A stretch of DNA of 64,000 bases from Heterotrichella gracilis (taxonomy: Eukaryota; Sar; Xanthophyceae; Tribonematales; Xanthonemataceae), in the NCBI GenBank assembly GCA_032358255.1, contig JAULBX010005553.1, forward strand, positions 248,001 to 312,000. The letters are read 5' to 3'. Made by a program: the position numbers and the translations under genes. Positions within the stretch are counted from its first letter, which is position 1. Each line of letters opens with the position of its first letter. This document shows, in pieces, positions 478 to 50,044 of the stretch. Under the pieces are notes generated by a model. The model saw nothing but the letters and a program-made list of their open reading frames with translations. It had not been told where the DNA came from and did no database searches.

Positions 478-3400
478 ATGCAGGCCTCAAAACTGCTGCT
501 TATACTTGCAGTGCTACCCACACTAGCCTGGGGACAATATGACGAATGTAAGTCGGGCAGCAAACCCTTGCCATTGTGGCTTGGTGCAGGGCTGCAAAGC
601 TTTCTGGTATTGCTACTCCGCTGGTTGACACTCTGCGCTGGTATGCTGGTGGCGTATTTTGAAGCGCAATGCCGCATGCACCCCCACCTCGCATTGCCGT
701 TTGTGGACCCGCACCTCCCCACAGAGCACCACCCTCGCCAAGATTGGGCCTCACACCCACCTGCACACGCCACAAGCCCTGCATGTGGCGGGGGTGGGTG
801 CTGCCTGCGTCTCAATGCACCCTGAGGTTTAGGTGGTGCACCTTGCACCCCTAACATTCACTCACTATGTGGCGAGACCCATAGGCACCACTGGTGCCCG
901 CACACACACCTGGAATACAGCCTGCTGTCCCCTCAAGCCTCGGCTTGTCCCCACACTTTCCTGCCCAGTCCCCGCCTGCATGTCTCCAACCCCAGTCCTC
1001 CTCCCTCTGCAGACGGTTTCCTGTACACCATGCGCGAGGGCATCAGCAACTGGATGGACTTTTCCGCAGCCAACGGCTACGACTGGTCCGACAGCATCCC
1101 ATTCTGCCGCTGGACGGGCATCACATGCGACAGCGCGGGCCACGTCACCTCACTGTACGGCCCCACGCACACCCGCGCACACACCAGGCATATGCACCCT
1201 GCACCTACCACGCCACAGGGCTGGCGCTAGGCAGCGGCTTGTGCAGGGCAGGAGTGTGTGGCGCGTGGCCGCTGTTGGTGCATATTTTTCAACTGAGGCC
1301 ATGCCTGCAGCCATACTTGTGCACACGACCCTGCACCTCGCACACCTGCTGTGGGTGTGGATACCCTTCCCAGCGGTGCATCCCTGGCGGGGCAGGCCTG
1401 GGCACGCGGGCTGCGGCTGAGCACCCACCTTGCCCATGACCACTTCCACCACCACCCACTCTCCCCTCCCCTTGCAGGATCATCAACGTGACCTCCGAGG
1501 TGCCTGCCACAGGCCCCCTGCCCCCCCGCCTGTTTGAGCTGGAGTACCTAGAAACATGGTGCGTCCGTGGTACTGCAAAACCCTAAACCCTGCCGCTTGG
1601 TTGAGCTGGAGTATGGTGCATGGTGCATGCACTCTACCGCAACACCCTCCAATTTGGTGTAGGCTGCTTAGTGGCGAAAGTGTGGGGGTTGGGCAGGTGC
1701 ATCGGGACCCAGCGCATGGCGGTGAACAATTGCTTGTCTAAATCATTAAAGGAAAGGAAATATGAATGGGAAATGGGAAGTCCACGCCATGCAGACATGT
1801 GTTGTGTGTGAAGATGCGCTTCAGCAGGGCTTGAAGCGTAGCAACCATGCTTACACATGTTGCGCCACCCGCGCTCGCCTGTACTTTCGATCTCCTGCCC
1901 GCATGGACCTGTCCAACCAGGCCTTCACCCAGCAACAAAATAAACCATAAACCTTTTAATAAAACCTAACGTATTGCCTCTCCCCTTCCCGCAGTGACCT
2001 CTCCAACCAGGCCTTCACAGGGTCAATACCCAACGAATGGGGCGTGGACGGGTTCCTGCTCTACCTCACATCGCTGTAAGCAACCTGGACCCTACACCTT
2101 GAAGGAACCCTAGGTGTCGGGGGAGGGAAACACCTGTACGGTTGGGTGGGTGAAGGGTAGCATGTGGGACAGCTGCCATGACTCACGCATGGGATGCAGC
2201 CACCCCCACCCCAGGGGGCTGCCAAGCAGGCTGTATGTGGGGTCCCTGCCATGCATATACGGGTGGCATGTGGGGTTGTGGCGTTCCAGCCATGCATGTA
2301 GGGCAGCATGTGAGGTACTTCCCTGCTGTCCATTCTTGTCTCCTAGTGCAACCCAGACGCGTAGCCAGTTGGACGTCCACACTTTGCAGCACAGTAGCTG
2401 TCCAACAGCGGTTCCATGCGCAGGCTTTATACTGTGCATGCCCTGCCTGGGGCTGCCTACACACTGCTGCGTGGGCATCTCCGGGGACGGATTTTTCTCC
2501 TCCTTTGGGACTCGTAAAGAAACTGGCATTTCATCCCCCACAGCTCATCTCCTCCCCTCCCACCGTGCAACCCTGCCAGGCGGCTGCCAGGCGGCGCACC
2601 CCACCAACCCTCACCCCCCCACCCTTCTCTCGCAGGTTGATGAAGAACAACACCCTGAATGGCCCCCTGCCCGTCAACTGGGGATCGATCGGCGCCTTCC
2701 CATCCCTGGACAAGCTGGACCTGTCTGTAAACTCCCTTACCAACTACATACCCGCCTCATGGGGACAGGCAGGCTCCTTCCCCGCCCTCTCATACCTGTG
2801 AGTCACCACCCCTGGCATGCACTGATAGCGCCATGCTGACCGGACTGTCACTGTTGTCAATGTCATGCAATGTCACATGTGTTGGGCATGGTGCATGTAT
2901 TGCATGCGCCGGCGGCGCCAGGTTCCATCACTGCATATAACATTTCCTTATGTTGCACAATTTGAAATTGTGCTGGGGGTGTTGTGCACGTAATGGCGCG
3001 AACCTTCCATGGTGCATTATGTTGTTACTGAGTTGCCTTGTACACACGGCGGCGGGCACTTTGTCCTGACGCTATGTTTACCATGTATGAACCTTACATG
3101 GCGCATCCTGCTGATGCAAACCCTGCTGTTGTGCAGGGACATCTCTTACAACACCCTGAGCCAGGCCTTCCCCACCACCTGGGAGCTAGGCGAGGCCTTC
3201 CCAGCACTGGAGATACTGTGAGTGGTCGAGAATTGAGAATTGGAAGATGTAAAATGGGACAACAAATTACACTAAGAACCTGGCTACGGAGTCTGCACCT
3301 GAGTCTGTCGTCATTTCCCTCCAGGACTGGGTTCCACACATATGCCATGGGGTGTTTGGCAAGGGAACCACTTCCAGCTGCGTCACAACAGCGCAACACC

Positions 3401-5180
3401 CCCCCACCTACCGCCAGCAGCGCCCCTTGCCAACCCCCCCTCTCCCCCCCCTCCTGCAGGCTGCTGAGCCACAACAACCTAGACCTGAAGCTGCTGCCAG
3501 GGTTTGGGTCGGGCGTCAGCTTCAGGAACCTCACGCTCATGTAAGCCACGCTAGGGTGCAGGGTTTAAGATTTAGGGTGTGGGTCGGGGTATCAGCTTCA
3601 GGAGCCTCACGCTCATGTAAGCCACGCTAGGGTGTAAGGTGTAGGGTTTGGTCGGGCAACAGATTCCGGAATCTCTATGTAAGCCACGCTAGGGTTGAGG
3701 GTGTAGAGTTTGGATTGGGCGCCAGCTTTAGGAACCTCACGCTCATGGTATCCATGCGCGGGTGTAAAGTATAGGGTGTGGGTCGAGCGTCAGCTATAGG
3801 AATTCCATGCTCATACTCATGCCGTGTGACTCCATCCAAATGCTCGTAGCCCCTGACCGGCCCTCTGCACTCCCTTCTTCAACTTGCTTTGTTGTGCCCT
3901 GCGCATGCTCTCACCTCCCTCCCCAGCCCACCTTCTGCAATCCCCTCTCCAGCCAGTTGTGGGTGTCATTCCCCCATTGCCACCCCCTGATATGTATCCT
4001 CCCCTTGTGCAGGGACATGAGCCAAAACCTGATCAGGGACTTTTTGCCCGAGGCGTGGGGCGAGCCAGGGCGCTTCCCCAACCTGAAGTACATGTAAGTA
4101 CCCTGGTTTCACCCTTGGTCGTCCTGATCATTTTTGGCCCTGTTTCCACTTCCTGCACTGGCAGCCTGCTGGTTGTTTGTTCTCTCACGCCCCCACGTGT
4201 ACGCCCCCTGGCTTGAGACTGCGATCACTGTCCCCTGATACATAACATTGTTGGAAATTGTGCCGCAGCTACATGCTAACCTGGACTCGTAATTCAACCC
4301 TTGGTTTGGACTGCTGTCTCTGTACCTTGACACATGCATTGTTGGAAAGTGTACCTTTAATATACTGCACCACAAATACTAGGGTGCTTGCCTCCCTTGT
4401 GACTGTAAATGACATTCTGGTCGACGCCAAAACCGCCATTACCACCACCACCACCACTACCATTGGCTGCACTTGAACTCAATTCCTACCCTTGACCCAA
4501 ACCCCGTCCACCTGCAGCCTGCTGTTTGGCAACCAGCTGCGCGGCTATGTGCCCAACTCGTGGGCGCGCCTGCCCTCGCTGCAGTACGTGTACCTGCGCC
4601 CAGGGAATGACGAGATGTGCAATGCCATCCCCTCGCGCCTGGTGGGCAAGGTGTGCGAGGTGAACACCGCCTTCCCCAACCAGTGCATTCCGGTGGCGGC
4701 CCTGGGAGACACCTGCCCATGTGAGTACAGGGAGACCCTAACACCCTAAACTCTAGCCCAACTTAACTCTAGGCCACCAACCCTGACACCCTTCCCCAAC
4801 CAGTGCATCCTGGTGGCGGCTCTGGGAGACACCTGCCCATGTGAGTGCACGGAAACCCTAAACCTCAGGCCTTGAGCCCTGCCACCAGGTTCCTGATTGA
4901 CGTGGCCAAAACATATTTTGGGGGGAAGGCATGGGAGGGGTATGCGCCACAATTCGCGCCACAAAAGCATTTTGGAGTGGAATTGATGGGATTTGGGTGT
5001 GCCATGAGGGTGCAGATGGTGTAAATGTGGGTGGTATCCCTTGGTACAAGCCACCATGTCCCCTCCTTGCTACGTGCCTGACAAACCCTTGTGCCCCCCG
5101 CAGTCACTCCAGGGTACCCGCCCCAGATACCGGCGAGGCGCCTGCTGCACGCCGCGCCCTCCCTCGACACAATACCCTAA
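478..5180 (+). CDS. Secreted leucine-rich-repeat protein built from 81-nt exons
   Basis: Ten exons can be joined in phase: 478-547, 1013-1154, 1478-1558, 1995-2075, 2636-2797, 3137-3217, 3460-3540, 4013-4093, 4518-4720 and 5104-5180, giving about 352 residues. The protein opens with a signal peptide (residues 1-19, LLLILAVLPTLAWG core). A plant-type LRR N-cap follows, with W and paired Cys (FCRWTGITCDSAG). Then come about eight LRR units with LxxNxL-type cores such as DLSNQAFTGSIP, LDLSVNSLTNYIP and LLFGNQLRGYVP, and a Cys-rich C-cap (DEMCNAIP, KVCEV, QCIPV, DTCP). There is no membrane segment or kinase domain, so it resembles the extracellular part of plant LRR receptors or LRR-extensin/PGIP-like proteins. 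It is probably secreted or in the cell wall and binds an unknown ligand. Exons 3, 4, 6, 7 and 8 are each exactly 81 nt and exon 5 is 162 nt, all phase 2. The final exon is short and its stop is the least certain part. Confidence 0.85.
1532..1630 (+). repeat. Intronic echo of LRR exon 3 end
   Basis: The end of exon 3 with its donor (GAGCTGGAGTA... near 1532-1570) is imperfectly repeated at about 1599-1630 inside the following intron. The word AAACCCTAAACCCT lies between the two copies. Confidence 0.55.
1904..2025 (+). repeat. Intronic echo of LRR exon 4 start
   Basis: The intron just before exon 4 contains a near copy (about 1906-1934, GACCTGTCCAACCAGGCCTT) of the exon start at 1996-2024 (GACCTCTCCAACCAGGCCTT). 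The copy has no good acceptor directly before it. Confidence 0.75.
3505..3825 (+). repeat. Five-copy tandem array of LRR exon 7 end plus donor
   Basis: The real exon end (about 3507-3556, CTTCAGGAACCTCACGCTCA then GTAAGCC) is followed by four diverging copies starting near 3581, 3651, 3714 and 3781, with a period of roughly 65-75 bp. Copies 2 and 3 keep the GTAAGC donor and copy 4 has lost it. Spacers contain telomere-like words such as GATTTAGGGTGT and TGTAGGGTTTG. The array may offer cryptic donors. Confidence 0.85.
4671..4860 (+). repeat. Echo of LRR exon 9 end, 120-bp period
   Basis: Positions 4671-4740 (exon end, donor GTGAGT and first intron bases) recur at 4791-4860 with a few substitutions and an intact GTGAG donor. 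The 50-bp spacer is rich in CCCTAA words. Use of the second donor would need read-through of the spacer. Confidence 0.9.
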
Positions 5181-6521
5181 TGGAGGGTATGGAGCAACTT
5201 GTGACGGCGCCCACTGCCAGGGCAGCTTCTGTGCAGGGGCGGCACAGCCCGCTCGGGCACAACCTTTTGGAAAACCCTGGCCGGGGAGACTAATACCGGA
5301 GTGAGCAGCGTTGGAACACACGCGCAGCACGGGGTTCTCACCTGGGAGCAGGGTTTGTGGTTGGACCGGAGCGTGTGCAAGCACCTGTGGAAGGTGCACC
5401 ACATGGAGCCTGCACAGCTGCTGCAACTCTTTCTACTATGCTGTGTCCAAGTTGGCTTATTTTCACCTTAGTCCCTTGCTTGCCGCGTACATATGCATTG
5501 CATGCGATGCCTCACATCGCACATCCCGCATTCTTTATTGAACGATAGGCCTTGGAGACACGTGTTGTGTCTCAATACAAGCTGCCTTGCTCTGATACCC
5601 CCCTCACGTTGAACGGGGACGGGGTCAGCCCACTTCCACCTAAACTCAATCCGTATTTGTTTTTGGGAGCCGCTGCAGCAGGGGGCAGGGGGGTCCACAC
5701 AGCCATTGCATATTTTACGGTATATCATTTCCAGCATGGTGGTTTGTGTGCGACCTGAATGCTTGAACGCCACACCATGCTGGGTTCACAAGGGGTGCGT
5801 GTGACTCACAAGTGCACCCGTGAAGTAGGTTGTAACTGGCTGTTGCACCCTATCCCGATGGCATGCAAAGTAGCACAAACTTGGCAACACGTTTGGCACA
5901 ATCTGCTGATCATCAGGCTCTGCAGCAAGAAAGACATCGTGCAACGAGAACTGATGTGACAATCAAGGTTGACACTGCTTTGCTAGGGTTTGTTTTAGGG
6001 TTCAGCTCTTGGTCAAGGGCTTGGGCGCCAATATTGGTTTTTCATGCCATTGGGTACGTGTCATACTCTTAAAAGCATCTGCTAGCGACAAGGTGACGTT
6101 GTCCGGCTGCTTTGTGGCGCATATGCCGCGAAGAGGTTTCTCAAATACCAGCACATGCGCACACACACCGCTGCCACCGGGCACCTTTCTTTCTGTTGAG
6201 CCGTTCTTTGAGATAGGCGTTGCACCGATCTGAGGTTCTGCGAGTTCTAGCTCGATGAGCTAACGGTGAGTGCCATTTTGCAGCTGGATGGGCTGGTTGT
6301 ACATGGCAGACGAGCAAAATGCATGCATGCATATGCAATTCGAGACATGCAGTTGGTATGATTGTATGATCCTGTTGACACAACGCTATCAGCCCTAACG
6401 TGGAATTCTCAGTCTGTCTGCTCACTGCAACGCTGCAGGGGTGCCATACGGTGCTCTCAGCCCATCAACCCCTCAAGGGTTTCTGCTCTGTCACAGCACC
6501 AGTGGCGCGCCTCGGGCCAGC
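5181..6521. other. Intergenic region, LRR gene to molybdopterin synthase gene
   Basis: No supported exon, RNA gene or known repeat was found in this 1.3 kb. It should contain the 3' end of the LRR gene and the promoter of the next gene. Its left edge carries the palindrome ATACCCTAATGGAGGGTAT at 5172-5190, which overlaps the LRR stop codon. Confidence 0.5.
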
Positions 6522-8797: not shown

Positions 8798-11655
8798 ATG
8801 GCGTCTGGTCGCAGCCCCTTGTGCCTTGCCCTGCTGGGTGTGGTGTGCTTGCTGCTGGCAACACAAGCTGAGTCACGAGAAGGAGGGAAAGGTGGGGGCA
8901 GGCGAGGTAGGTCTCAGCATACCCCAGATCCTATTGGGCCGGTGCACCATCCAGACCATCGGCTTAGTGCTGGGAAATGGATAAGCGAGTGTAGAGTGTA
9001 AACCATGTGGACACAAGTACCTGGGGTAATGGTTGCCGCTGACACAGCTGATCCACAACCCATGGCACTTAGCATGAGCATGCGGCACCGCCAACATGTC
9101 ACTGGCCCCTCATGCACCTGCACCGCGGCCACCCCCGCCCATCGCACTACACAACATAGGCCATGCCAAATACGGCACCCATCGCACATGGTGCTGTGCC
9201 TAGCCCACTCACTGCCCACACGCGGCAACCTACCCTGCAAGTGGCCCACCCACCTGGGCATGCCTGCACGTCCCTCTGCATGGGTCACCGCCCCCCGCCC
9301 TTGATTGCACTAATTGCCGTGGTCATCATTGATCAGCATGATGATCACTATCTAGGGCGCTGCCTCACATCAATTGCACTGCATGCCATGAACAAGATCA
9401 TCCATGATCATTAATCACCACTGATCCCCGCCACCCCCTGCAGGCCGCAGCAAGTGCCCGCGCCGAGTGGAGGACCCCTGGCCCCAGCAGCCCGACGGTC
9501 AGGATGAGCACTACCAGCGGTGCTTGCCCAAGGAGTTCACCCGCCGCACCCTGCCCAACGACCAGCCGCTGTACCTGCCCGGCCTGGTTGCGCTGTACGA
9601 GGACATGCACACCTTCATCGCCAAGACGGGAGGCTGGGAGCGCGGCTCATCCAGGCCCTTCTCAATCGCGCACTATGCGGAGCAGGTGTGCGGTTGGATG
9701 GTATGCTCATGGATGTATTCTGAGGCATGCTGTTTAGTCCGGGAGCACTGGGGATCCAATGATCTGCCTGCAGCAGCCTTCCTGACCTGCGCCCATGGCT
9801 GGTTGTTCCCAGAGCAAACCTCAGGTATCATGGCAATTCCCACACGCGCCATGGAGTGGGACCATGATGGATGGGAGCATGTCTAATGTCAGGTTACAGC
9901 ACATGAAGCAGAATTTTCCTGATCGTATGGAATGGGGCGGAATAATGTATTCATTGTCCAAACGCCAAAAATCATTCGCCATAGTTTTCAACTCTCCCCA
10001 CATTCACAAACCCCATGTTTAGGTTGACTACTACTCCCGCATTGCGCTGAGCCCCGCCATCAAGACGGTGTGCGAGGTGGGGTTCAACACCGGCTACTCC
10101 ACCGGCGTGTGGCTGGAGTCCAACCCCACCCTCAAGGTCATCTCCTTTGACACCCTCGACCAGAAGTTCAAGGAGCAGTGCGTAGAGTTCATGCAGGAGC
10201 GGCACCCGGGCAGGCTGGAGGTCATCAAGGTGGGTGGGTTGGGACTCCCTGGGAGGTCCTTGGGTTGGCTGGAGATCATTGTGGGGATGAGGATGGGGGT
10301 GGGGGTGGTGGGGATCCGTGGGCGACGTGGCGCCATGCTGTAGGGTTGCACATAGCACACACCAGGAGGGGCGTGGTGAGAGGAGGTGCAAAGGCTGGTC
10401 CATGTGGCCCGCATACTCTAGGGCTGCTTACCATAAGCGCAGGCAATTAGGCGGTGTCATGCCTTCAGTCAGGCCATTGGCATTGGGACCTCCGTCAAGC
10501 ATTGGCACACGCCTTGGGCACACTGCTCTTTCACGTGCCCAGTACACCACCCCTCACCTAACCCTGAGTCCCACACCAGACATAAAGCACCACATCAACC
10601 GTTCACTCAAAACCCCCACACAGGGCGACTCCACGGTTGAGGTGCTCGAGTACATCAAGCGCCACTCCACCGACGGGCGCTACAGCGGCCCGCTGTGCGA
10701 CCTTGTGCACATAGACGGTGACCACTCCTACTGGGGCGCGCGCAAGGACTTTGTCAACCTGCTGCCCATGACGCACTGCTCAACCCTGGTGCTCATGGAC
10801 GACATGTGCCAGCCGGGCAACTGCCACCTGTACACCGCCGCGCCCCCGCAGGTAGATACCTGCATCCATACCATGCTACACATTGCTACGTGGCATGCAC
10901 CATTCAAGCAGGACGCACTGCTAGCTCAATCCTCCTTCAGAATTTCATCAGAACACAAACGTATAGGGATCAGGTTGCAAGCTTGGTTGGCCTTTCACCC
11001 ACAATGTGTGAATCATATGTTATGCATTGGCTGATGTTGCCATCTTGCTGTGATGTATCTACCTCCACCTCCCTCGCTACCATCCCATATTTACCCCTTG
11101 CGCCCTCCCCGCCCCGCAGGACCCTGTGCACTTCCTAGGCCCCACTGGTGCCTGGGAGGAGGCTGTGTACCACAAGGTGATAGACCACCTGGATGGATTC
11201 TACTCCTGGGACAAGAAGGACAAGGGCTGGTCGCTGGGGCGGATTAGGTGGGTTGGGGATGCGGTGGGGAGGGGTATGAGATTTTCAGATATGACAACAA
11301 CCCATATCACGTGTCCCTCTGCAAATGTGATTGTCCCCCCCACCACCCCCCATCCCTTCACATGAGATGATTCATGTTCCTATTTTCGAACCTCCCACGG
11401 TGAAAAAGTGCGTGAGACCCCATGCCACGGGAGGTTTATATTTTTAAAGTGCCGCCTGCTGTATACACCAGACTGCAATGCTGGCTTCTGATTGCCCCCT
11501 GATTTTCCCCTTCCAGGTGTGAGAAGGGTGAGCTGCCCTCCTTCCCCTCGCGCCCACTGTTTGAGGACTGGGACGCGTTCTCAAACAAGATGAAGAAGTG
11601 CTTTGATGACAAGGGGTGCAAGGACTTCAACGTGGGCGCCTTTGACAAGCAGTGA
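8798..11655 (+). CDS. Secretory-pathway class I SAM methyltransferase (Methyltransf_24-like)
   Basis: Six exons, 8798-8906, 9444-9685, 10023-10229, 10624-10851, 11120-11247 and 11517-11655, join in phase to 350 residues. An N-terminal hydrophobic segment (LCLALLGVVCLLLATQAES) is a signal peptide or anchor. The catalytic fold follows: motif I VCEVGFNTGYSTGVWL binds SAM, the acidic end of strand 2 is KVISFDT, and CDLVHIDGDHSYWGA plus TLVLMDDM are the later strands. The IDGDHSY motif is typical of Methyltransf_24, a family found in enzymes that methylate sugars, phenolics or other small substrates. The substrate here is unknown. Paired Cys (CQPGNC, CEKGE, KKCFDDKGC) suit a lumenal or extracellular location. 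The start is supported by ACC before ATGG and by the signal peptide. Confidence 0.88.
9318..9424. repeat. GATCA-rich imperfect palindromes in an intron
   Basis: The first intron of the methyltransferase gene carries clustered TGATCA/GATGATCA words near 9329-9350 and 9399-9424. They could fold into short hairpins. No function is evident. Confidence 0.4.
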
Positions 11656-15100: not shown

Positions 15101-16068
15101 CTTGCGTGGCCTGGCGAGCAGCCGCATAGAAGTCCCCGGCACTGAATTCGGACGTGGGGTCCAGGATGTCGATCAAATGGTGCGGGATGCCGCGCCGCTC
15201 CTCCACAGGGATCTGCACCGCATCACCACAGCCCAGGGTCATGCGCCATGCAGGGCATCACAGTGCGTGGTGATGTGTACCGTGGGTCTCCCATGGGTCA
15301 TGCGCCATGCAGCAAGTGGCAGTGCGGGGTGCACAGTCGCAAGGAACACGCACATTTGAGGGTTTTTAGATGTGTGAATTCTCCTACTAAAACCTCTGGT
15401 AATACAAGACGTTTTCTTCTGTCGCGAATTCAATCTTTAAAACGCCGTGCACATTCTAGCATCATTTATGGGAACCCAAAGCACCCTGCGCCCCTGCCAT
15501 TTGAGGGTGTAGGGGCTGGCATATGCCCCCCTATGAATGCAATCATTTGAAGACCACCCACCTTGTCTGACCCCACATCCAGCCCCCGATACACCTGTAC
15601 TGAGTCAGCGCTGATGATCTCCCCATCCAGCGCCTCAGCCAGGTGTAGGGATAGCTGGGTCTTGCCCACCGCAGTGGGACCGGTGAGGATGATCACCTTG
15701 GGAAGACCCTGGCTAGGGTTTTGGCTGGGACCCGTCAGGGTTGCAGCGGCGGCCATGGAAGCCCTAAACGCCGAGCTGGGCTGGTGCGCGCGTGTCGATG
15801 GGGGGTAAGCCAAGTGGCAAGGTGGGTTGGATAAGTAGGCGGAGATGGGAGGGAAGCGGGCGCCGGATGGCCCAAGGAGGGTGTGGAAAGCGCTTGGTCT
15901 GGAGCTAGGCCCATGGTAGAGGCATGCGGTAATGTGTGGCATGGCGGGGCATGGCGGCTCCTGCCGCCCCAGTCGGTGGTGGAAGGCGCCAAAGAACGGC
16001 TGGGCCCTATGGCAGCGGCGGGCAGCAGTGCGCAAGAGGTGGGCTGAGGCTGGCTGGCCGCACTGCAT
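12191..16068 (-). CDS. IPT: tRNA dimethylallyltransferase (MiaA-type), organelle-targeted
   Basis: Nine exons on the minus strand join in phase: 16068-15562, 15212-15090, 14834-14709, 14449-14340, 14117-13995, 13554-13467, 13325-13191, 12888-12717 and 12336-12191. The enzyme transfers a dimethylallyl group from DMAPP to N6 of A37 in tRNAs reading UNN codons; in plants this is also a route to cis-zeatin. Visible motifs are the P-loop [18 protein letters not shown], the substrate region [42 protein letters not shown], and [11 protein letters not shown] near the end. From the upstream ATG it has 509 residues. The first ~104 are Arg/Ser/Pro-rich and could be a transit peptide. A second ATG at 15756 (MAAAATLTG, good context) would give 405 residues, so both starts may be used. 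The C-terminal zinc finger of cytosolic eukaryotic IPTs is absent, fitting a bacterial-type organellar enzyme. Confidence 0.93.
13566..13633. repeat. (GGC)n(GGT)n triplet microsatellite beside a splice acceptor
   Basis: About four GGC and eighteen GGT units lie in the tRNA-IPT intron, next to the acceptor of the exon at 13554-13467. On the transcribed strand this reads (ACC)n(GCC)n, so it takes the place of the usual polypyrimidine tract. Confidence 0.9.
13640..13740. repeat. GGGATGGTAGCC-type short tandem repeat
   Basis: Imperfect repeats of GATGGGATGGTAGCC continue from the triplet tract into the same intron. They look like ordinary minisatellite drift. Confidence 0.6.
15236..15335. repeat. 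Intronic duplicated GGGTCATGCGCCATGCAG
   Basis: The word at about 15237-15254 recurs near 15297-15314 within the tRNA-IPT intron next to exon 2. Flanking bases are similar but diverged. Confidence 0.65.
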
Positions 16069-24421: not shown

Positions 24422-26394
24422 ATGGAGTCAATGACAATGACCTCGGGGAGGGTGGCAGTGCCATTCCAGAGCAGGCGGGTGTCCGCCGCTCGCAGCCAGC
24501 AGGCGTCTGGCCGCTCCGTGCAGCTGCGCACCGCATTCACAGGCAGCAGCCAGGGATTGAGCTCCTGCTCGACCGTCAGCTCGGCCTTCATGGGCACACA
24601 CGCACCAGCCCACAACAGCTCGCGCAAAGTGACAGCCATGGCAGCCAAAGGTTCGTGTTGGGGGTGGAAACCCTTACTAACCAGCTGTAGGATATCCCAA
24701 AAGCAGGCACTGGGTGGGCCAGGTGCACTTTCCTATCATTGAGTGCTGTCATGCAGTACTTCCAGTGCAAGTTCCCCAAACCAGTGCTGCCAACTTGCAC
24801 GGGCAGTAGTGCAAGTGAAAGGTGAAATCTTGCTGGAATTTGACGTCTATCATTGTGCACTGCAGTTACTGGCATGATTAAGCTGGCGCTGTCTGCGGGC
24901 AAGGCCAACCCAGCACCACCAGTTGGACCTGCCCTGGGTTCCAAGGTGAGCTGCCAAGTACCATAACCATAACATAGCTAGTACTAAGCAGCACCTAGCT
25001 ACCTGCATAAAGCTTCCAGGCACAGGAAATTCAGTGCCTGGAAATGCAATTGTGCATTCTTCGTGCAACACAGACTTGCGGGGGTGCATCGACTCTGCGT
25101 GTTGCAGTGCAAACGGTGGATGCCATCCCCACCCATCCCCACCCATGCTGGTTGGCACATATCACCGGGCAAGTATGCACCACTTGCACGCTGTCACACA
25201 CAGCCCAACACTCTGTGCCTAGCACTGCCGACTCCCAGCTGTTGCGCTGCGCAGGGTGTGAACATCATGCAGTTTTGCAAGGAGTACAACGCGGCCACAC
25301 AGGACAAGGTCGGCACAGTCATCCCAGTGGAGATCACGGTGTACGAGGTGCGCTCAACAACACATCACCCCCCACCTCCGCATGCCATGAGGCACCCACA
25401 CACCTGACTGCACACACGCGTTTGAGTGTGCAGTGCATCCACCATGCCTGCCTGCACTGCTCCAAACATCCACACCACCAGGTGCGGTTTGGAGTTGGCC
25501 TGCAGCCGCCCACTCACATACTTTTGCACCACCACCCATCATCCCCACACCCCACTCCTCCCCACCACCCACCATCCCCACCACCCACTCCTCCCAGGAC
25601 CGGTCCTTCACCTTCATCCTGAAGACACCCCCAGCATCCGTGCTCCTGAAGAAGGCAGCGGGTGTGGAGACTGGGTCAGGCGAGCCCAACAAGACCTTTG
25701 TGGGCACAGTCACGCGGGCGCAGGTCCAGGTGGGTGGGGATGAGGGATAAATTGGGTGGGGTTTGCGAGCCCAACAAGGCCTCTATGGGTACAGTCACGC
25801 GGGCGCAGGTCCAGGTGGGTGCCCTATGAAACCCTAAACCCTAAACAAGGGTTATATGGGCTCAGGTCGAGGTGGGGCCCCATGGGAGATGAGGGACAAA
25901 TTGGGTGGCGTTTGCGGGATCGGCGGGGTTCGCTCGCAGTGGAAGGGGGCAGGGACAGTTTGCGGGAGGGGTGTGCGCTGCCGGCGATCATCCCTTTGGA
26001 GGGCAGAAAGCGTTGAAGGGGGTTGCATGTTTGGGGTGGAAGGACACTGAGGGTGGTTGGGGATTGTGCATCCACACACACTATTGGGCGAAGCTGGCGC
26101 ACCGCTGCATGTTTAGAAGTCTCCTGCACCACACACGGCAAAAGGCATGTGACTGAGCAGGGGGCATGTCCTCCATTGGTCTGGCAGTGGGTGCAGCCAC
26201 AGCACCCCAAACACACACGCGCACGCAGAGCCAGTGGTGCTGCCCTATGGCCTTACGACCCCTCCCCTGCTTTTCCATCGCAGGAAATTGCCCAGATCAA
26301 GCTCCCCGATCTCAACTGCAGCACCCTCGCCTCAGCTGAGCGCACCATTGAGGGCACCGCTCGCAACATGGGCATCAAGGTGGTGGAGGCATGA
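24422..26394 (+). CDS. PRPL11: Plastid ribosomal protein L11 (uL11c)
   Basis: Five exons, 24422-24650, 24866-24945, 25255-25347, 25598-25729 and 26284-26394, join in phase to 214 residues. Residues 1 to about 74 form a Ser/Arg/Thr-rich plastid transit peptide with few acids. The L11 N-terminal domain follows with [20 protein letters not shown], the Pro-rich helix that contacts the GTPase-associated centre and L10/L12 stalk base, then [15 protein letters not shown] and [16 protein letters not shown]. The C-terminal RNA-binding domain, which binds the 23S rRNA L11 region, ends [18 protein letters not shown]. The product works on the plastid 70S ribosome. It looks intact and typical. The exon 4 end and the region around the stop codon both have imperfect downstream echoes. 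Confidence 0.95.
25680..25920 (+). repeat. Echoes of L11 exon 4 end in the next intron
   Basis: The exon end with donor at 25680-25737 (GCGAGCCCAACAAGACCTTT to CAG|GTGGGTG) recurs at 25764-25821 with an intact GTGGGT donor. A third, partial copy lies at about 25858-25917. The last two are separated by CCCTAAACCCTAAAC. Confidence 0.9.
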
Positions 26395-26455
26395 GCAATG
26401 CCAGCATAGGGACATGGGCATCGCTGTGGAGGAGGCATGAGCGATGCTAGCCAGG
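26368..26455 (+). repeat. Echo of L11 stop-codon region
   Basis: The last codons and stop (26368-26411, GGGCATCAAGGTGGTGGAGG then CATGAGC) are imperfectly repeated at 26413-26455, in the 3' UTR. The duplicate keeps the GAGGCATGAG stop context. Confidence 0.8.
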
Positions 26456-39190: not shown

Positions 39191-42100
39191 ATGTTTCGAG
39201 GCCATGGTACACTCCAACAAATCCTGGGAAAGACCCTTTCGGGCAAGCGCAAGGCAAAGAGTGGCCCCAAGCTAGCCAAGGAGGCTGCGGGTGCCAATGG
39301 CAGCACTCCTGACCAGGCCACCAAGGCCAAGACGCCTGTGAGCCATGCACCCACCTCTGATGGAAGTCCCGAACCCAATGGAAACGGCACCAGCGGTACC
39401 GACCACCAGGATGACTCTTGCGCAGCACTGGAACCTTCACAAGGGCAACGGAGCCCTAAGAGGTTTCGGCTCGCAGCAAGGAAGAGCAGCGCTAAGGATG
39501 AGCAGCCCGGGCAGCTTGGATCCAGTGAGCAGCTTCCGGCCAACCACGTTGCTTGCCCAGTGTGCGGCAAGGCGGTCAGGAGTGACGACGGCGGCATCAC
39601 CATCAACACCCATCTTGGTATGTAGGCATGGCACTCTGCTTGAAGCGCGGCCGATGCTTGAAGCGCCAAGGCACTTGTCGCTGCCAGAGTATTATGCACT
39701 TGTACTCTGATAACACCGTGACCAACCTGTGGGCGTTTGCAAAGCACGTGCACCAACCCTGCAGAAACCTTTTGAAACCTACCCCAGCGTCAGGCCTTGC
39801 TGTGTCTGCGGTGCGAGCCTCAGCTAGGCATCCACTGGTAAGCACAACCAACGATCCCAACGGTGCCCCTGCAGACACCTGTATCGCCCGCAGCCGCGCC
39901 ACCCGCCCACGCGCCCAGAGCACCCTCAAGCAGTTCACCTCCTTCCAGCCCCAGCCAACCCCCCAGCCGGCCCATAACCCCCCTGCACCTCACCCCACCA
40001 ACACCTTCTCAGCCCTAGCCAGGCCCCAGCCCCCACAAAAGGGTTCTCCCACCCCCCACCAGCTCCACCCCACACCACAAGCACAGCTCACCCCCCGGCG
40101 GTCAGCCAGGCTGGCGGCGACTCCAGACCCAGCCTTGCATTCAAATTCAAAACCAGTGACCAGTGTTGATTCAGACATGCCACAAGCACACCGTGGTTCC
40201 CTCACAACACAAGACTCAGCTGCTTCTCTGAATGGGGATCTCCACCGCCTGCACCCCCAACCCCGGTCAGAACCCCCGACCGCCAGCCCCAAACCCTACC
40301 ACACACGGGCAGCAGACCGCCTCTTTGCTATCCCCGCCACAGCCCAGCAACCGCTCCTAAGTGCGCCTGGATCACACAAGAGCCCTGGAACGCGGCGCAC
40401 TGGGCCGTCCACACAAGGCCGCAGCCTCGACCCTCAAGACAGCGCCCTATTGGACGATCAGGCAGCCCAGGCCCTGGACCCTAAAGTAGGGTCAAGTGGG
40501 TCCCAGCCTCGGCCAGTGGGTCACGCCAGTGGTGGGGTGGCAGCGGGTCAAGGGGTGTGGCTGGTGGTCAACGCCAGCATTGTGGGCCGCCGGTTCCATG
40601 CGGACGTGCGGTGCGCAGCTGGGGATTCAGTGGAGCTGCGTCTGGAACCCGAGAATCCCAGGGACGGCAATGCCATTCAGGTGCGTTTTGAAAGTCTTAA
40701 CCCATGTACAGTTCACACCTATGCACCAAGCAAGTGCCTCTTTACATATGCATCACGGCCTTGCCAGTGGCGGCAGCGATAATCATACCCGATCCTTGCT
40801 CCACAGGTGATTCTCAGCCACTCAGGCGCCCCCCTGGGCCACCTGCCCGCAGTTGTGTCGCGCCACCTTGCGCCCCTCGTGCGCACACAGGCGGTGCACG
40901 TGGCCATCCAGCTGGCAGGCGCACCGCCACCTGGCACCGCCGCAGTGCCCCTGCTGCTACAGGTACAACAGGGTGCTTGTGCTTTGATGGTCGGGTACTT
41001 GCACTGTATTTTGACTGCCACTGGGTGGCTGATTTGAGATGTTTGTAATCTGGTCACTGTGAGTTGCTGCATCTGCATTATGCCTCAGGTCGGGAGCATC
41101 CCTGTATATTGCCGCTCCTGTTTGCTCCTGCACATGTGACAGTTTCCTTTGGGGTTAATGTATGGCATTCTTGCTATATGGACCGGCTTGGCCTGTCTGC
41201 CTGTGATGGGTGGGGACAAAGTGGGTGCTTGTCATACCAGTACCCTTACATGCAAACTCTCAACCAGTCGTCGCCCGCGCAGATACACCCCCCTCCCGCC
41301 GCCCACCCATCCCCCACCTCCCACCCCCCGCCACCACCCCCCACAGCCGTAGCCACCGCCCTGTGCGCCCTGCAGTCCGCTGCCTGCCGCCATACCAGCG
41401 CCTCAGCCCACCTGCGCACCAACTTCCTCATGCTGGCGGCCACAGTGAGGGAGACAGATGGCCATTTACTGGATGATGGGGAGCACCAGCTGGTGGCGCG
41501 GCTGGCGGTGGGTGAAACACACAACCCCACAGCTGCTCCCTCCTTGTCTCTGCCCTGCCCCTGCCGTCAAGATCTCGTCCCTCTATCCTCCCACCCTGTC
41601 TATACCAGTCCTAGTTATTGCCTTTGACAGGTGTATACCAGCCAGATGGCCTAATTACACCATGTTCATATGCCCCATGTACTCCTGTCCTAAAGACCTC
41701 CCGCTGATAGAGCCCGCTGGAAAACCCTATGCAGGGTTTGCCACCCCCCGCCCTCAGCCTGCTGGTCCGCCTGGTCCAGCGGCGGGGCCCATGGTTCCGC
41801 CTGGGGGCGCTGCAATATGGGGAGGTTGAGGATGTGGAAGGGGCTGCGCGCGCGCTGGAAGCCGAAGGGCTGGCACGTGGCTGTGGCGGCGGCGGTGGTG
41901 GTGGTGGTGGGGTGGAGGAGTGGCTGGAGGTGGCCGGTAGCGCTTTTGGGCTGCGGGAGCTGCAGGCCGCTGCCAAGGTGGGTAGCTGGGGACGGGGACC
42001 CTGAGCCAGGGTGTGGTCAGGGTTTGTTTGATGGCTGCATGTGTGATTGTGGTTAGGAACATGCAAACTTTTATAACATATGGGCAATACCAGATAATAT

Positions 42101-45100
42101 ATAACAAATACTTGACTATTTTAAGCATGTCTCTAAACATTTGCTGGGCACTTTGATTGAGGAAGGTCTGGGTTTGCATGGCAGATGTGGCATGGTGCGA
42201 AACCTGCTCAATATCATGCACAGCAGGTGCATTGGGTAATGCAGGGTCTCTCCAACCCCTTAGAAATTCTTCCGCTCTTTTGCAGGCTGCGCAGGCAAGC
42301 AACGCCAGGCGTGTGTCAGTCCCCACCCGTGCAGCTGCTCTCGCCCATTTGCGGACGGCAGTGGCAACAGTGGGGGGTGTGGCGGTGGTCGCAGCGCTGT
42401 ATGAAGCGGGGGGAGGCTGCATTATGCTGATGCCGGTAGGTGGTGATGGCCTAAACCTCTAGGGCCTTAAACTACTCAATAGACATGAAGCATTCAGGCC
42501 CTCAACCTCAGATTGTTAAGCTCTGAACCCATATTTGAAACTGCACCCCAGGGTTTTATACCATACTCTTTTTCACATCTAACACAATCACACTGCTCCA
42601 ACAAGCATGCAACTGTAGCCGACACCCAGCCCAAGGCTACAATAGATTCCTCCATAAGAACATAAAAATAACCTATGGGAGCAAGACATGCAGGCAGGAT
42701 GCAGGGTGAATGTACCAGAAGGAAAGAAAAGAAAAGAAAAGAAAATAAACGCCCAAGGCGTGCATAAGGCGGCATAGCCCCCACCAAAAATGAGTCAGGC
42801 AGGAAAGCCACCATACTAGTCACATTGGCAGTGCCATGCTTTTCCTACAAGGAATGCGTTCAACCACCGCCAGGAACCTGCCCCATATAACCCTCTGGCA
42901 CAGCCTCCTTGTTCCCTTTTTTGCAGGAGGTTGTCTCCCTGGTGTCCCGCCTCTCCCGCCTCTTTTTCCTGAATGAGGGCCAGGACGTGTCCAGCTTCCT
43001 GGCAGCAGACCTAGGGTTGATGAAGTACCCTAGCTACGCCGTTCAGCGCACCGCCTCGCCCTTTGCCAACCGCGAAACCCTGTTAGGGTATGAGCTGGCG
43101 CTGCAGCAGGCAGCGGAGCTGGATGCAGCACTGGAGGTGGGTGGGGTTGAGCTGCCCTACTGTATGATGCTCGTATCAGATGATACTCATTCGCGTCGCC
43201 GTCTTTGTATAGACCATGCATGGCACAGCAGAAACGCCTTTGGTGCTGTAAGGCTGCAAATGTGTGTAAAATTAGCAAATTAAATTCAGCAAATTAAAAA
43301 CCTAATCCACCCAAGGCAACTCAGACCCTGGATAATTTATTTCCATTCTTCTACCGTATGTAACATCCGTAAGCGCGCCCTTATTGCATTGTTTCAACCA
43401 AGCCGTCCCCTCCTTCCCTTGCCTCCCCTCCCTGCACCTCGATTGCAATGCAGGATGGGGATTTGGCAGCCGCACAGGTCGCGTTGGTCCCCGCATGGGC
43501 CGCAATCGATGCCGGGGCCCACAAGCAGCCCCACGTGGGACCCAACGGGACGCGCCTGCCGCCCTGCTTCCGGCGCTTCTCGGCCACATATCTGTACACC
43601 ACCATGGCAACGGCAGGGGTGTCGGTACTGGAGAAGCAGCGGGAGTGGCGCGCCGCAGTGGACAGGCTGCAGCAGCTGCTGGGTGCGTACAAACCCTAAT
43701 GAAACCCCTGTACTTGTGTTGAAACCAACCAACCGACTATGATTTGGTACACTTGTGAACCGCATGATGGTCCAAGACCCAGTGCCTATAGGCATGGGTT
43801 GTCATCAGGTCACATGCTGTTTCACTGGGGAATCCTCCATTGGGTAATGTCAGGGGTATACTAAATATACTAACATTGTTGCATGCATTGTTGGTATAAT
43901 TAGTGTACCCTTGTTAAATTGAGCCTACCACTGAGTAACCCAGTCCTGGTGCGGTGGTTTATCTTGTGCAGGCAGTGTGTGTTGGGGGTGCTCTGTGTGC
44001 CTGTGTGTTTGTCAGTAATGGCGAATGGCGGACCTAAGTGGGTGTGCTGCTGTGCAGGCGGTGTGTGGTGTGTGGGGCGGCGTGGCGAGTGGTGGCTGCG
44101 CCTCAGCACCAACCTGGAGCACCTGGGGCGGGTGGGGGAGGCGCTGGAGGTGGCGGAGGCGGCACTGGCGGACGAGGGGGTGCGCACAGGGGACAGGTAG
44201 GGGTGGGGCAGGGAAATGGCTAGGGTTTGGGATAGCATATGGTATAGGCTCATATAGGGTATCGGCTGAGGCTGGGTTGGCGTACATGGGGATGTGGGCA
44301 AAGGTCTACTTGGGTTTTGGTTAAGTCCAGGGTTTTGAGGGATCCCATAATCCTAGCCCATGTACATGAGGGTGCTAGTTGAGAAACATATACCGTATGC
44401 AAATGCCTGCAGCTTCACCTCAGTCCTCCATCCCCATGCCCAGGCTTGGTCTCAATTTCGGGGTACATGCCGGGCATGTAATTGCAATCCCCAAAATGGT
44501 CCTGACATAAAGACCTCGAACAAACAACCTCCATTCGAAATCCCCCATCCCCATTCGCATCCCCAGGTTGGCCCTCCAACGTCGGGTGCTGCGCCTGGGC
44601 CGCCCCCCCCGCCGATGGAAGCGCCCCCCCTGGGCCCCAGCCGCCACCTGGGAGCCGCCTGAGACCCGAATCAGTGCGCAGCCCCTGCCGCCGGTTAATG
44701 GGGGGGCGGGGCTGGGGGTTAAGTCGCGCTTCATTGGGCAGGGGGGGGAGGTGGTGGGTGTGGAGGAGCTGGCACTGGAGTACTACGGGAGTGTGGAGGG
44801 GGGAGGGTGGAAAGGTGCGTGCTGCAGAGGTGTTCAGGGGTCTGTGCCTATGATGGATTTGTACGCCCCATGGCTGTGCAAGCTATTTTGTGCTTTGCTG
44901 GCTGCCAAGCTTTGCTGCACACACGTGCCCCATCTGCGCCACACACCCTTCTCCCCATGCCCCAGCAACCCTAAACACAGCGTCCTGAACCCTGCGCACC
45001 GATGACCTCCACTCAGCCAACCACCGGAGTACTCATCTGCAGCACATCCGTAGCAAGCTTTCACACCCCGTTGGCCCTGCTCCTGCAGGCATGCACTGCG

Positions 45101-46361
45101 AGGGCGGCATCTGGGCCACCCTGTTTGGCCTGCTCATGTGGGACGTGCTGTTCTGCCCCCAGCCCGACGTCTTCCGCACACCCTTTCAGACCGCGCCGCT
45201 GGACCTGCGCACGCTGGACTTCTACCCCGCACGCAAGGTGGGGACTGGGGATTCTACTATTGGGAGTCCTAGCAATTGGAACTCTTCATGGGGAAGCCTG
45301 TCGTTTGCGCACTGACTTGTACCCTGCATATAACTTGACATGGACATGGACCCTGACAGGAAGTGTGTTGGACCCTGATGATACCCTGGCTTGTATGGAC
45401 TATATGGGGAATTGATCAAACCTCAGAAGCCTGATATGGAGCCCTAGGGGCCCTGTGACGCGGTTTGTCCATACCCGTTTGTCATGACTTGTACGACCAT
45501 TTCCAGTCATTTTCTGTCATCTCCGCTGTTGACCGAGACGACAATTTGACCCACCTTTCTCAGGATGCTATTGTATCCCGCCTGGCCGCCATCCGCTCCG
45601 GCGCCTTCCCCTCGCTGCTGGCCCAGGTGTGGGGGGAGCACCAGGGGGTGATGTGCGCGGGTTTGAACTGGGAGAGGAACAGCCTGGATGAGCTGCAGGA
45701 GGTGGCGGCGTGCGTGGGGGGGCAGGTGCTGGCGGAGGTGTGCGGCATGATGGCCAGGGACCACGCGGCATGGTCAGGTGGGGGGTGGGACGAGGGACGT
45801 GTGTATGGCGTGGGGGGTGGTGGTGGGTGGCATGATGGCACGGGTGGATGGGGCGTGCGCACAATTTGGGAGGCCTGGTCAGGCGGGATGTGGGGCTGTG
45901 GGTGGTAGGTTGGCGCCCTTGCATCATGGGGTTCAAACATGGCCTTGGCACCGCGCACATTCCCGGAGGTGCAAATGAACCCTTCTCTGCTCACACTCCG
46001 CGGTGGTCCACACAGCTTGCCCGCGATATCAGTCCTCGCACCCCATAGCTTGTCTGTGATTGACCAAGGAATACAAATCCAATCCCCGAGGCGTGCGGCC
46101 CTGCACCTCAATGATGCTTTTGTTCCAATGTCTGACAAACAAATTGAGCCTCTTTCCCACCTCTGCGCAGGCGGCATGCCCGACCTGCTTCTGTGGCGGC
46201 CCGGGCCATGTGATTCCCTCCTATCCGAGGTGAAGGGCCCGCGCGACCGGCTGTCGGACCAGCAGCGTGCGTGGCTGGCGGCGCTGGCAGGGGCGGGCAT
46301 GCGAGTAGAGGTGCTCAAGGTGGTGGAGCCAAAGGGGGGGAAAGGGGGGGTGCTGGCCTGA
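39191..46361 (+). CDS. FAN1: Fanconi-associated nuclease 1 (UBZ4 + HIRAN + VRR-NUC)
   Basis: Thirteen exons join in phase to 1097 residues: 39191-39617, 39875-40680, 40807-40962, 41376-41507, 41735-41977, 42286-42435, 42927-43136, 43454-43682, 44058-44196, 44567-44814, 45089-45237, 45564-45777 and 46171-46361. FAN1 is a structure-specific 5' flap endo/exonuclease for interstrand crosslink repair in the nucleus. A UBZ4-type finger spans exons 1-2 (CPVCGKAV...INTHL|DTC). A HIRAN-like region is at the exon 2/3 junction (NASIVGRRFHADVRC, LEPENPRDGNAIQ). Family helices follow: LLVRLVQRRGPWFRLGAL, YPSYAVQRTASPFANRETLL, FRRFSATYLYTTMATAGVSV, PPRRWKRPP, GMHCEGGIWATLFGLLMWD. The C-terminal VRR-NUC has GGMPDLLLW and SEVKGPRDRLSDQQRAWL, with the catalytic D, E and K present. 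The enzyme looks active. Least certain are the acceptors of exons 4 and 5 and the loosely conserved exon 6. Confidence 0.95.
42720..42746. repeat. (GAAAA)n short tandem repeat
   Basis: A short run of AAAGA/GAAAA units lies in a FAN1 intron. It is a simple repeat. Confidence 0.8.
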
Positions 46362-47749: not shown

Positions 47750-48705
47750 AGGCTCGGCTTGCCAGCAGGGCTTCACAGCCCCTGCCAGATGGGCACCGCC
47801 TCACCCGCCAGCTGGCTCCCCTCCACCTCCTCCACCTGGCGCACCACCTCCCCGCACTGGGCCGCTGGCTGGGGTCAGGGTGGCAGCACTCCCGCACCAG
47901 CCGCGCCCACCGCCGCGTCCACCGCGCCGGCAGGTGCCCCATGCACCCCTTGTTGATCGACCCTGGCGTCATCGCACCCAGCGCCTCGGTGCACCCCTGA
48001 CCCTCGGGGTCCACCACCATGTGGGGGGTCCAGGTGTCGCCGTGCCGTGCACCGCCATCTCCAGATACCGCAGCAGCGCCCCGTCATCCGCCACGTGGCA
48101 GTAGGGCATGCGCCCGCAGCACAGCCAGTGCACCACGCACCCCAGCGCCCACACGTCAGAGGCGGGCGAGAGGGGGTAGTCGCCGCCCGCGCCGTGCACC
48201 CGCGCGCGCAGCAGCTCTGGTGATGCGGTGCGCACGCTCCAGCCCCCCACCGCTGCCCCGCCGTGGGCTGGGTGGATGTAGGTGGCCCCGCCAGACCCGC
48301 CAGCAGCACCTGGGAAGCCGCCACAGCAACAATAAATGAACATACAAAAGCAAACAAGTAATAATACTATAACATACTTTTCTAACAAATAATACTGCAC
48401 ATCCTATGACAATGACAACGTCCCAGGATCGGCCAGCAGCAACCAGGAACCCCCATTGGAATCACTCACAGGACATTCTATGATAAATCCATGCAATTAA
48501 AGAAGCAACACTTCCCACAGCCCCGGCAGATCTGTACCTGGAAGCGCCCCCCCTGCGCCTCCCGCAGCATGATGTTCCCTGTGCTGATGCCGCCGTGCAC
48601 CACCCCCCTTGCGTGCATGTGACTCAGCGCGCGCAACTGCCAGCGTCATGTTGACGATGAACTCTGGTGATGGTTCGTAGAACTTTATTGCATCCTCCTC
48701 GCTCA

Positions 48706-48895
48706 AGGTGAATGTTGAGCCCAGTGTGTTGGCCAAGGCGGACTTGGTGGACCTGTGGGGGGAGGCGGGCAGATGAGTTTATGTAGAGAGGCTATGTAGG
48801 GTATAGGGTATAGGGTTTAGGGTTTGTCCTCGGTGAAGGTGAATGTTGAGCCCAGTGTGTTGGTCAGGGCGGACTTGATAGACCTGTGGGGGAAG
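48706..48895 (-). repeat. Echo of a kinase-like exon start with acceptor
   Basis: The exon start and acceptor at 48706-48763 recur at 48829-48895 in the upstream intron. Both keep CAGGT at the acceptor and encode KSAL-NTLGSTFT. The spacer is telomere-like (GGGTATAGGGTTTAGGGTTT, about 48800-48825). Confidence 0.9.
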
Positions 48896-49636
48896 GGGGG
48901 TAAAGAATTTGGTGACAGGGCTGTTTAATGGTTAGGGTTCGAACCTGAAACCCTAGACCCTGATCAGGGTTCAAGGTTTAGGGTTGGGTTTAGCAAGAGG
49001 GCGGTTAGCCTGGTTCTGTCGAGGGTACCACATGTGCACATGCTATCGGCAATTCCAAGAGTTGCAACAGGCAAGCGTAGGCAATTCAGTGCATGCACGT
49101 AGGTAATGCAGTGCACAATGTTACCGCTGGCAGTGCATGCACATGGCATCGTGGCCGCTGGAGCCACACGTGTCCACGCATGCACCACAGGGGCAGTAAC
49201 TTCAGCAGCAGACACACACGCATGCACACAGAGGCAGCGCAGCACACACACACATAGCCACACAAGCACAGGCACACACGGGCAGCCTCACGCACCGTAT
49301 CCACCCCGCCAAGCTCATGTCTGTGCTCTCCATCACCACCTCCAAGATGCCCCCATGCCCCGCCTCCACCACCGCCTTGCAGGGCAGGATGTGGTGCTCC
49401 ACGCCCCCCACATCACCCGCCACCATGGCCTCGTGCGCTGCCAGGCTGGTGGTTAGAAACCCTACTAGGGTGAGCGGCAGCTCCAGGAGACTCTGGTAGA
49501 GCTGTGCCAGTGCCCTGCTGTGGGGCCGGATGATGCGCGGGGCTGAGGCCCACACCCGCATGGCGACCAGGGCGCTGTGCGCAGGGTTTTGCCTGTCTGC
49601 CAGTACTGCCAGGTCTGCTTGGGAGATGCGCAGAGG

Positions 49637-50044
49637 GGCGGTGGGTGGCTCCTGGGGTGCGGCACTGCAGACAGTGGGGAGGACAGGTCTGAAGTTTCAG
49701 GGCTTGGGGTTTAGGGTTCAGGGTTCAGGGTTGAGTGGGTTGAGTGGGTTGGGTGGCTTCTGCATTGGGCCGCTGCAGGTGGGGGGGAGCACACGTGTGA
49801 GGGTTCAGGGCTTGGGGAGTAGGGTTTAGGGTTGCGGTGGGTGGCTCCTGGAGTGGGGCACTGTAGGTAGTGAGGGGCACACGTGTGAGGCTTTATGACC
49901 TGTGAATTGGGGTTTAGGGTTTAGGGGCGGTGTTTAGGCTTCAGGGGTTAGGGCTTTAGGGCTCGGGGTTTAGGGTCAGGGTTTAGAGGCGGTGGGTGGC
50001 TCCTGGAGTTGGCCGCTGCAGGCAGTGGGGTGCACAAGTGTCAG
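49637..50044 (-). repeat. Four-copy echo array of a kinase-like exon start
   Basis: GGTGGGTGGCTCCTGGGGTG with the following acceptor (49637-49680, real exon) recurs at about 49745-49800, 49833-49890 and 49987-50044. Spacers are almost entirely TTTAGGG, TTCAGGG and related words. Confidence 0.88.

What the first reader, a model, noticed from the sequence alone, without database searches (positions are those of the whole stretch)
1532..50044. Recurring intronic 'echoes' of exon ends with splice sites, spaced by telomere-like words
In at least three unrelated genes (LRR, plastid L11, kinase-like), the end of an exon with its splice site is copied one to four times into the adjacent intron: 1599-1630, 1906-1934, 3581-3825, 4791-4860, 25764-25821, 48829-48895 and 49745-50044, plus the L11 stop region at 26413-26455. 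In most cases CCCTAAA/TTTAGGG-like words lie between parent and copy. Both donor and acceptor sides are affected, so simple slippage in one motif does not explain it. Seen: the copies and spacers. Inferred: one mutational process, such as repair of breaks near exon boundaries with telomere-like filler, or selection for spare splice sites. If genome-wide, it would be an undescribed way of growing introns and creating alternative splice sites.
Basis: partly seen in the sequence, partly recalled or inferred. Interest (0 to 1): 0.82.

Follow-up and report, generated by a model that had tools for sequence, protein, structure and literature searches.

The report
Telomere-patched duplications echo exon ends
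In this alga, short stretches of DNA next to and inside introns have often been copied side by side, frequently with telomere-like letters patched in, which fits sloppy repair of broken DNA; copies that include an exon end are probably just the ones that stay recognisable longest.

Summary
In 314 kb, duplicate pairs number 207 at offsets 25-400, against 8, 0, 18 and 0 in four more distant ranges. Telomere-phase words cover 10.9% of noncoding bases in exon-to-noncoding duplications and 2.4% outside events. Of 178 noncoding telomere runs, 40 (22%) are flanked by a duplication, against 3.9% of random points and 5.1% of control-word runs; outside the window, 31 of 138.

Exon ends look strongly preferred (39 against 13.4 expected), but the excess is small and not significant (9 against 7.4; 7 against 4.1) once exons are masked when finding copies and the test stays inside introns of at most 1 kb. 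The exon copy is frozen by selection, so those echoes stay visible longer. Echo splice sites show no significant sign of being kept.

Best explanation: fill-in repair of staggered breaks, often with telomeric patches, then further tandem duplication. This is known from mammals at low frequency. The density here and the bias to short introns and exon flanks look unusual; the bias is unexplained.

The parts
1521..1626 (+). LRR gene: exon end 1521-1562 and intronic echo 1588-1626 (82%), CCCTAAA words at the junction
1891..2018 (+). LRR gene: intronic echo 1891-1928 of acceptor plus exon start 1981-2018 (87%), TAAACC words between
3505..3802 (+). LRR gene: exon end plus donor plus telomere-like words (3505-3573), followed by several intronic copies
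4664..4864 (+). LRR gene: exon end plus donor 4664-4745, echo 4786-4864 (92%), CCCTAAA words
25680..25821 (+). plastid-type L11 gene: exon end plus donor 25680-25736, echo 25765-25821 (93%); nearby further fragments and a CCCTAAACCCTAAA patch at about 25822-25880
   Evidence: Pfam L11
26366..26451 (+). L11 stop-codon region 26366-26405 copied at 26412-26451 (85%), no splice site involved
45669..45887 (+).
48696..48927 (-). kinase-like gene: acceptor plus exon start 48696-48798, echo 48827-48927 (82%), CCCTAAA patch (sense) at the junction
49630..50065 (-). kinase-like gene: acceptor plus exon start with several intronic copies and many telomere words

Best explanation
The echoes are ordinary local direct duplications made during repair of DNA breaks in gene DNA. 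A staggered break, or one with long 3' overhangs, is filled in and rejoined, so the stretch between the nicks (tens of bp to about 150 bp) is present twice. Telomeric repeats are often added at the break (the genome encodes a telomerase domain) or are already there, and patched sites are then duplicated again, giving arrays. Duplications inside exons mostly break genes and are lost. Those covering an exon end leave one working splice site and are tolerated, so the other copy sits in the intron as an echo. The exon copy is frozen by selection while the intron copy drifts, so these echoes stay recognisable longer than intron-only duplications, which creates the appearance that exon ends are targeted. 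Shown: the duplications, their direct orientation, the telomere association, neutral-looking decay of the echoes, and the visibility effect. Inferred: staggered breaks, fill-in, telomerase as source of the patches.
For: Local offsets. Direct, not inverted: 28 direct events against 1 inverted in the five sequences checked of nine. Telomere necklace TTTAGGG: 193 runs, 58 inside events; the other 19 necklaces of the same composition have at most 13 inside events each. Telomere runs flanked by duplications: 40 of 178 against 138 of 3560 matched random points; without the window 31 of 138 against 128 of 2760; the 19 control necklaces pooled 54 of 1054. Clean cases of a telomeric patch between two copies of 27 bp (C2 42622-42700, 93%) and about 35 bp (C24 31989-32081, 88%), 161 and 175 bp from the nearest predicted exon. 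Mismatch between exon and echo is alike at the three codon positions, 15.2, 16.1 and 17.5%: the echo drifts as noncoding DNA. Exonic columns 85.6% identical against 78.2% for intronic columns in 26 paired events: the visibility effect. With exons masked and both seeds in one intron of at most 1 kb: EI 16 against 12.7, 9 against 7.4, 7 against 4.1, 5 against 3.3 at four thresholds. Telomerase RNA-binding domain present (E 4.8e-13). Literature (passages read): duplication at 6 of 130 rodent and 4 of 25 primate telomeric insertions (PMC2246262), staggered breaks inferred (PMC7215372), small tandem duplications from CST-Pol alpha fill-in (PMC8355091).
Against: Looser fair tests that also used long introns and intergenic DNA kept a 2-3 fold exon-end excess (13 against 5.6, P 0.001); in the strictest test the point estimates are 1.2-1.7 fold and larger values are not excluded at these numbers. 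Telomere runs themselves are about twice as dense within 60 bp of exon edges, which the neutral account does not explain. In 20 of 35 telomere-bearing events the words are in both copies, so they preceded the duplication. Only 3 of the 22 EI and II events with identity of 0.90 or more carry a telomere run, so the patch is not needed. Single control words were flanked at 4 of 49 and 5 of 48, somewhat above random points. No empty site was seen: no relative is held. CTC1 and Ten1 Pfam searches found nothing, but the controls were silent too.
Confidence: 0.7

Rival explanations
1. Exon ends are a true hotspot: breaks or telomerase priming concentrate at splice junctions (for example through transcription-linked breaks or G-rich donors), so echoes are made there more often.
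For: Telomere runs 70 in 45.0 kb within 60 bp of exon edges against 59 in 74.9 kb deeper (P 8e-5); outside duplication events 43 in 40.8 kb against 35 in 67.4 kb (P 0.001). Naive excess 39 against 13.4 for offsets of 60 bp or more; 31 against 10.8 without the window. Intron-only duplications 29 in 119.9 kb of short introns against 7 in 100.4 kb of long introns plus intergenic DNA (P 0.001).
Against: Equal-visibility test inside single introns is not significant. Flank duplication per telomere run is nearly the same near and far from exons. Short-offset duplications (under 60 bp) show no excess, 2 against 3.1. Runs in arrays are not independent.
Confidence: 0.2
2. Echoes are kept because they provide spare or regulatory splice sites.
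For: 10 of 25 echo donors still score 5.5 or more, where real parents average 6.7; GT is kept slightly more often than expected (21 of 25 against 17.4, not significant); the gene finder placed a spurious 6-bp exon, 25809-25814, in the L11 echo.
Against: P 0.13 for the donors, acceptor AG 8 of 14 against 9.6; 24 of 25 would shift frame or meet a stop; the L11 stop echo has no splice site.
Confidence: 0.05
3. Introner-like mobile elements, or intron birth by duplication of AG-GT exon segments.
For: 85 pairs of different introns match at E 1e-4 or better, in both orientations (25 of 85 listed), so some dispersed repeats exist. Some events have exon sequence in both copies (23 EE of 104, 11 of them not wholly exonic).
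Against: Only 5 of 45 echo copies match anything more than 3 kb away (E 1e-3): three lie in two neighbouring similar C46 stretches, the other two are short matches of 19-35 bp. Echoes sit at existing introns with one copy wholly noncoding; in the 11 printed mixed cases donor and acceptor do not sit at matching points (by eye).
Confidence: 0.03

Closest known systems
Short interstitial telomeric sequences inserted at double-strand breaks in mammals (Nergadze 2007 PMC2246262; Sola 2020 PMC7215372; passages read)
   Same: Telomere-phase repeats at internal sites, sometimes with direct duplication of the flanks attributed to staggered breaks.
   Different: Mammalian cases are dated by empty sites; duplications are 4.6% (rodent), 16% (primate) and 4.5% (horse, duplication alone); the share of human ones in introns is as expected at random. 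Here 22% of runs are flanked by duplication (3.9% at random points) and runs concentrate in short introns and near exon edges.
Small tandem duplications by fill-in at break ends (Schimmel 2021 PMC8355091; passages read)
   Same: Direct, adjacent, short; fill-in of 3' overhangs by CST-Pol alpha, a telomere-maintenance complex.
   Different: No telomeric patches in the passages I read; here the enzymes are unknown.
Repair-mediated duplications in vertebrates (Pace 2009 PMC2671141; abstract and passages)
   Same: Local copies, filler at junctions, occasional partial exon or splice site copied.
   Different: Average distance about 1.2 kb (detection used transposons as markers); partial exon/intron donors 4, of 824 duplications; here copies are within 400 bp and direct.
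Direct repeats near splice sites (Rogers and Bendich 2025 PMC11782384; abstract and passages)
   Same: Repeats around intron borders.
   Different: 4-30 bp repeats that pair the two ends of one intron, read as insertion marks; here longer copies of one exon end inside its own intron.

Membership tests
Telomeric insertion at break sites (short ITS) | telomere-phase repeats inside chromosomes above chance | tested here: met
   193 runs; the other 19 same-composition necklaces have 23-136, median 62
Telomeric insertion at break sites (short ITS) | flank duplication or other end processing at the insertion | tested here: met
   40 of 178 against 3.9% at random points and 5.1% of control-necklace runs
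Telomeric insertion at break sites (short ITS) | empty site in a relative or allele, one-step insertion | not testable with these tools
   The genome search states that no relatives are held
Telomeric insertion at break sites (short ITS) | random placement with respect to genes (as reported for human) | tested here: not met
   denser in short introns and near exon edges; a feature of the mammalian cases rather than of the mechanism
Tandem duplication by fill-in of staggered breaks | direct orientation, short range | tested here: met
Tandem duplication by fill-in of staggered breaks | enzymes (CST, Pol alpha, NHEJ) involved | tested here: inconclusive
   CTC1, Ten1 models found nothing, silent also in the control genomes; Pol alpha and NHEJ not searched
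Introner elements | same sequence at many introns | tested here: not met
   5 of 45 echo copies match elsewhere in the sample; 85 intron pairs match, not the echo units
Intron gain by exon-segment duplication | donor and acceptor at homologous points of the two copies | tested here: not met
   in the EI events one copy is noncoding (under 10 exonic bases); by eye not the pattern of the 11 mixed EE cases printed

The most novel reading that the evidence does not exclude
In this lineage, breaks in transcribed introns are routinely processed like chromosome ends (telomeric addition, overhang fill-in, rejoining), concentrated beside exons, so that telomere-style repair is a main source of intron growth and of decoy splice sites.
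Probability: 0.2. Interest if true: 0.75.

Novelty: new variant of a known kind. Interest (0 to 1): 0.5.

Why it matters
About 9% of introns in the sample (36 of 420) carry a readable copy of their own exon end, and local duplication with telomeric patches is common enough to shape introns. It gives a countable record of break repair in one genome, warns that gene finders can mistake echoes for exons, and shows how selection on exons alone can make neutral duplications look targeted. If the concentration near exons is real, it would make transcription-linked breaks and telomerase at internal breaks testable in a simple organism.

Tried and rejected
Exon-end preference: strong in naive tests, weaker after masking exons, not significant inside single introns of at most 1 kb. 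Selection for spare sites: not supported. Echoes as alternative coding exons: rejected, no codon-position pattern. Introners: 5 of 45 echo copies match elsewhere, none as a widespread unit. Inverted copies: 1 found in five of nine sequences. CST components by Pfam: silent, also in controls. Literature: ten searches used; among the titles and abstract starts they listed I saw no paper on telomere-patched echoes of exon ends, but subscription journals are mostly missing from the library. The passages of the Auxenochlorella paper PMC12636532 on 'interstitial' and telomeric repeats concern loss of heterozygosity, chromosome ends and one internal new telomere. Rows dropped before counts: low-complexity segments (37 at threshold 20 in the masked scan; number not printed), predicted exons under 18 bp and genes under 300 coding bases relabelled. 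EI means up to 9 exonic bases in one copy and at least 5 in one; 43 of the 45 have 10 or more, and the stricter rule keeps 41. The organism was not identified.

Full report
Material. The window is C57:248001-312000 of a 68.5 Mb, 903-contig genome with no relatives held. I analysed 314 kb: the window plus 250 kb in 25 stretches from eight contigs. The stretches were not placed on telomere words, but the contig numbers came from the pattern listing. Gene models came from an HMM gene finder trained on these same data: 47 genes, 421 introns, clear donor (AG|GTRNGT) and acceptor (TGCAG|G) signals. It merges neighbouring genes and was checked only by Pfam matches of four window proteins, so exon edges look good but intergenic DNA is under-labelled.

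Observation. Scanning offsets 25-400 for 24-base windows with at least 20 matches gave 207 pairs in 104 events; 8 pairs at 401-776, none at 3000-3375 or 9000-9375, 18 at 6000-6375. All eight places in the finding are among them, plus 45669-45887. With gapped alignment, 45 events pair an exon part with noncoding DNA (EI), 36 are noncoding (II), 23 have exon in both copies (EE); in 43 of the 45 EI alignments the parent stretch reaches past the exon edge. The EE group includes echoes that the gene finder took for exons, such as a 101-bp tandem copy, 94% identical, at C2 35568-35767.

Telomere words. Coverage by telomere-phase 6-mers is 10.9% of noncoding bases in EI events, 8.4% in II events, 2.4% outside; reversed and scrambled words stay near 2-3%. 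Among the 20 necklaces of the same composition only TTTAGGG stands out inside events, 58 runs against at most 13. Events with a run: EI 21 of 45 against 4.2 in random spans, II 10 of 36 against 2.3, EE 4 of 23 against 1.2; without the window 15 of 36 against 3.0, 10 of 30 against 2.1, 4 of 18 against 1.0. Centred on the words instead: 40 of 178 runs are flanked by a duplication against 3.9% of 3560 matched points; near exons 22 of 84, far 18 of 94; two single control words gave 4 of 49 and 5 of 48. Without the window it is 31 of 138 against 4.6% of 2760 points, and the 19 control necklaces pooled give 54 of 1054. The words are at the junction only in 10 events, in both copies in 20, at the junction and one copy in 5. 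So some duplications were made with the patch, others copied a patch already there. Events with identity of 0.90 or more (22 EI and II) carry a run in only 3 cases, against 8 of 17, 12 of 25 and 8 of 17 in the lower bands, so the patch is not a general requirement.

Is the exon end special? Random placement of the same geometries, keeping only placements that leave one intact gene copy, expects 13.4 EI among 50 allowed events with offset 60 or more; 39 are seen; below 60 bp, 2 are seen and 3.1 expected. Without the window, 31 against 10.8. But exon columns of echoes are 85.6% identical and intron columns 78.2% (26 paired events): an intron-only copy of the same age is harder to see. Seeding with exons masked reduces the excess to 13 against 5.6 (threshold 19) or 8 against 2.7 (threshold 20) when all noncoding DNA is the reference (P 0.001 and 0.004). 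Requiring both seeds in one intron of at most 1 kb leaves 16 against 12.7, 9 against 7.4, 7 against 4.1 and 5 against 3.3 at thresholds 18-21, P 0.07-0.28; without the window 12 against 10.4, 7 against 6.2, 5 against 3.0 and 3 against 2.4. I take this last test as the fairest: it removes the lower density of noncoding duplications in long introns and intergenic DNA (0.10 and 0.03 per kb against 0.24 in short introns). Its power is low.

What remains unexplained. Telomere runs are about twice as dense within 60 bp of exon edges as deeper in introns, in each of the three intron size classes from 200 to 1000 bp, while control words are flat; 70 in 45.0 kb against 59 in 74.9 kb, P 8e-5; without the window 52 in 35.3 kb against 45 in 60.1 kb. 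Noncoding duplications and telomere runs are both denser in short introns than in intergenic DNA. Outside events, CCCTAAA exceeds TTTAGGG about 2-4 fold at 20-60 bp before the acceptor, which may reflect selection against AG near the acceptor or branch-point likeness of CTAAA (recalled, not tested).

Function. Echo splice sites decay about as expected without selection, and using an echo donor would nearly always shift the frame or meet a stop (24 of 25). Mismatches are spread evenly over codon positions.

Known counterparts. Telomeric repeats inserted at breaks, with duplicated flanks at a minority of sites, are described in rodents and primates (6 of 130 and 4 of 25 loci) and horse (PMC2246262, PMC7215372; passages read). 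Human ones lie in introns at the random rate and none in exons (PMC7215372). In Arabidopsis and rice the telomere motif is enriched in 5' UTRs and not in introns as a whole, though more frequent in the first two Arabidopsis introns (PMC3022908; passages). Small tandem duplications arise from CST-Pol alpha fill-in at breaks with 3' overhangs (PMC8355091; passages), and repair duplications of nearby DNA shaped vertebrate genomes (PMC2671141; abstract and passages). The pattern here works like these; membership cannot be closed without empty sites. The genome does hold a telomerase RNA-binding domain.

Verdict.

Noticed in passing
window 39191-46361 (+): Encodes a FAN1-like nuclease (VRR_NUC, FAN1_TPR, FAN1_HTH, HIRAN), a DNA repair protein; its exon end at 45669-45782 is itself echoed.
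   Followed up: partly
introns of the 314 kb sample: Telomere runs about 2-fold denser within 60 bp of exon edges, in the three intron size classes from 200 to 1000 bp; cause unknown.
   Followed up: partly
window 25809-25814: The gene finder placed a spurious 6-bp exon in the L11 echo: echoes can mislead annotation.
   Followed up: no
window 12191-18888 (-): Model reads as thioredoxin-like followed by a tRNA isopentenyltransferase-like protein, probably two genes merged (by eye; not searched).
   Followed up: no
window 13577-13633: Perfect (GGT)19 microsatellite.
   Followed up: no
fetched C13 stretch, positions 4476-5255: Multi-copy exon array with up to 99-100% identical pieces and a run of N; possibly an assembly artefact.
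   Followed up: no
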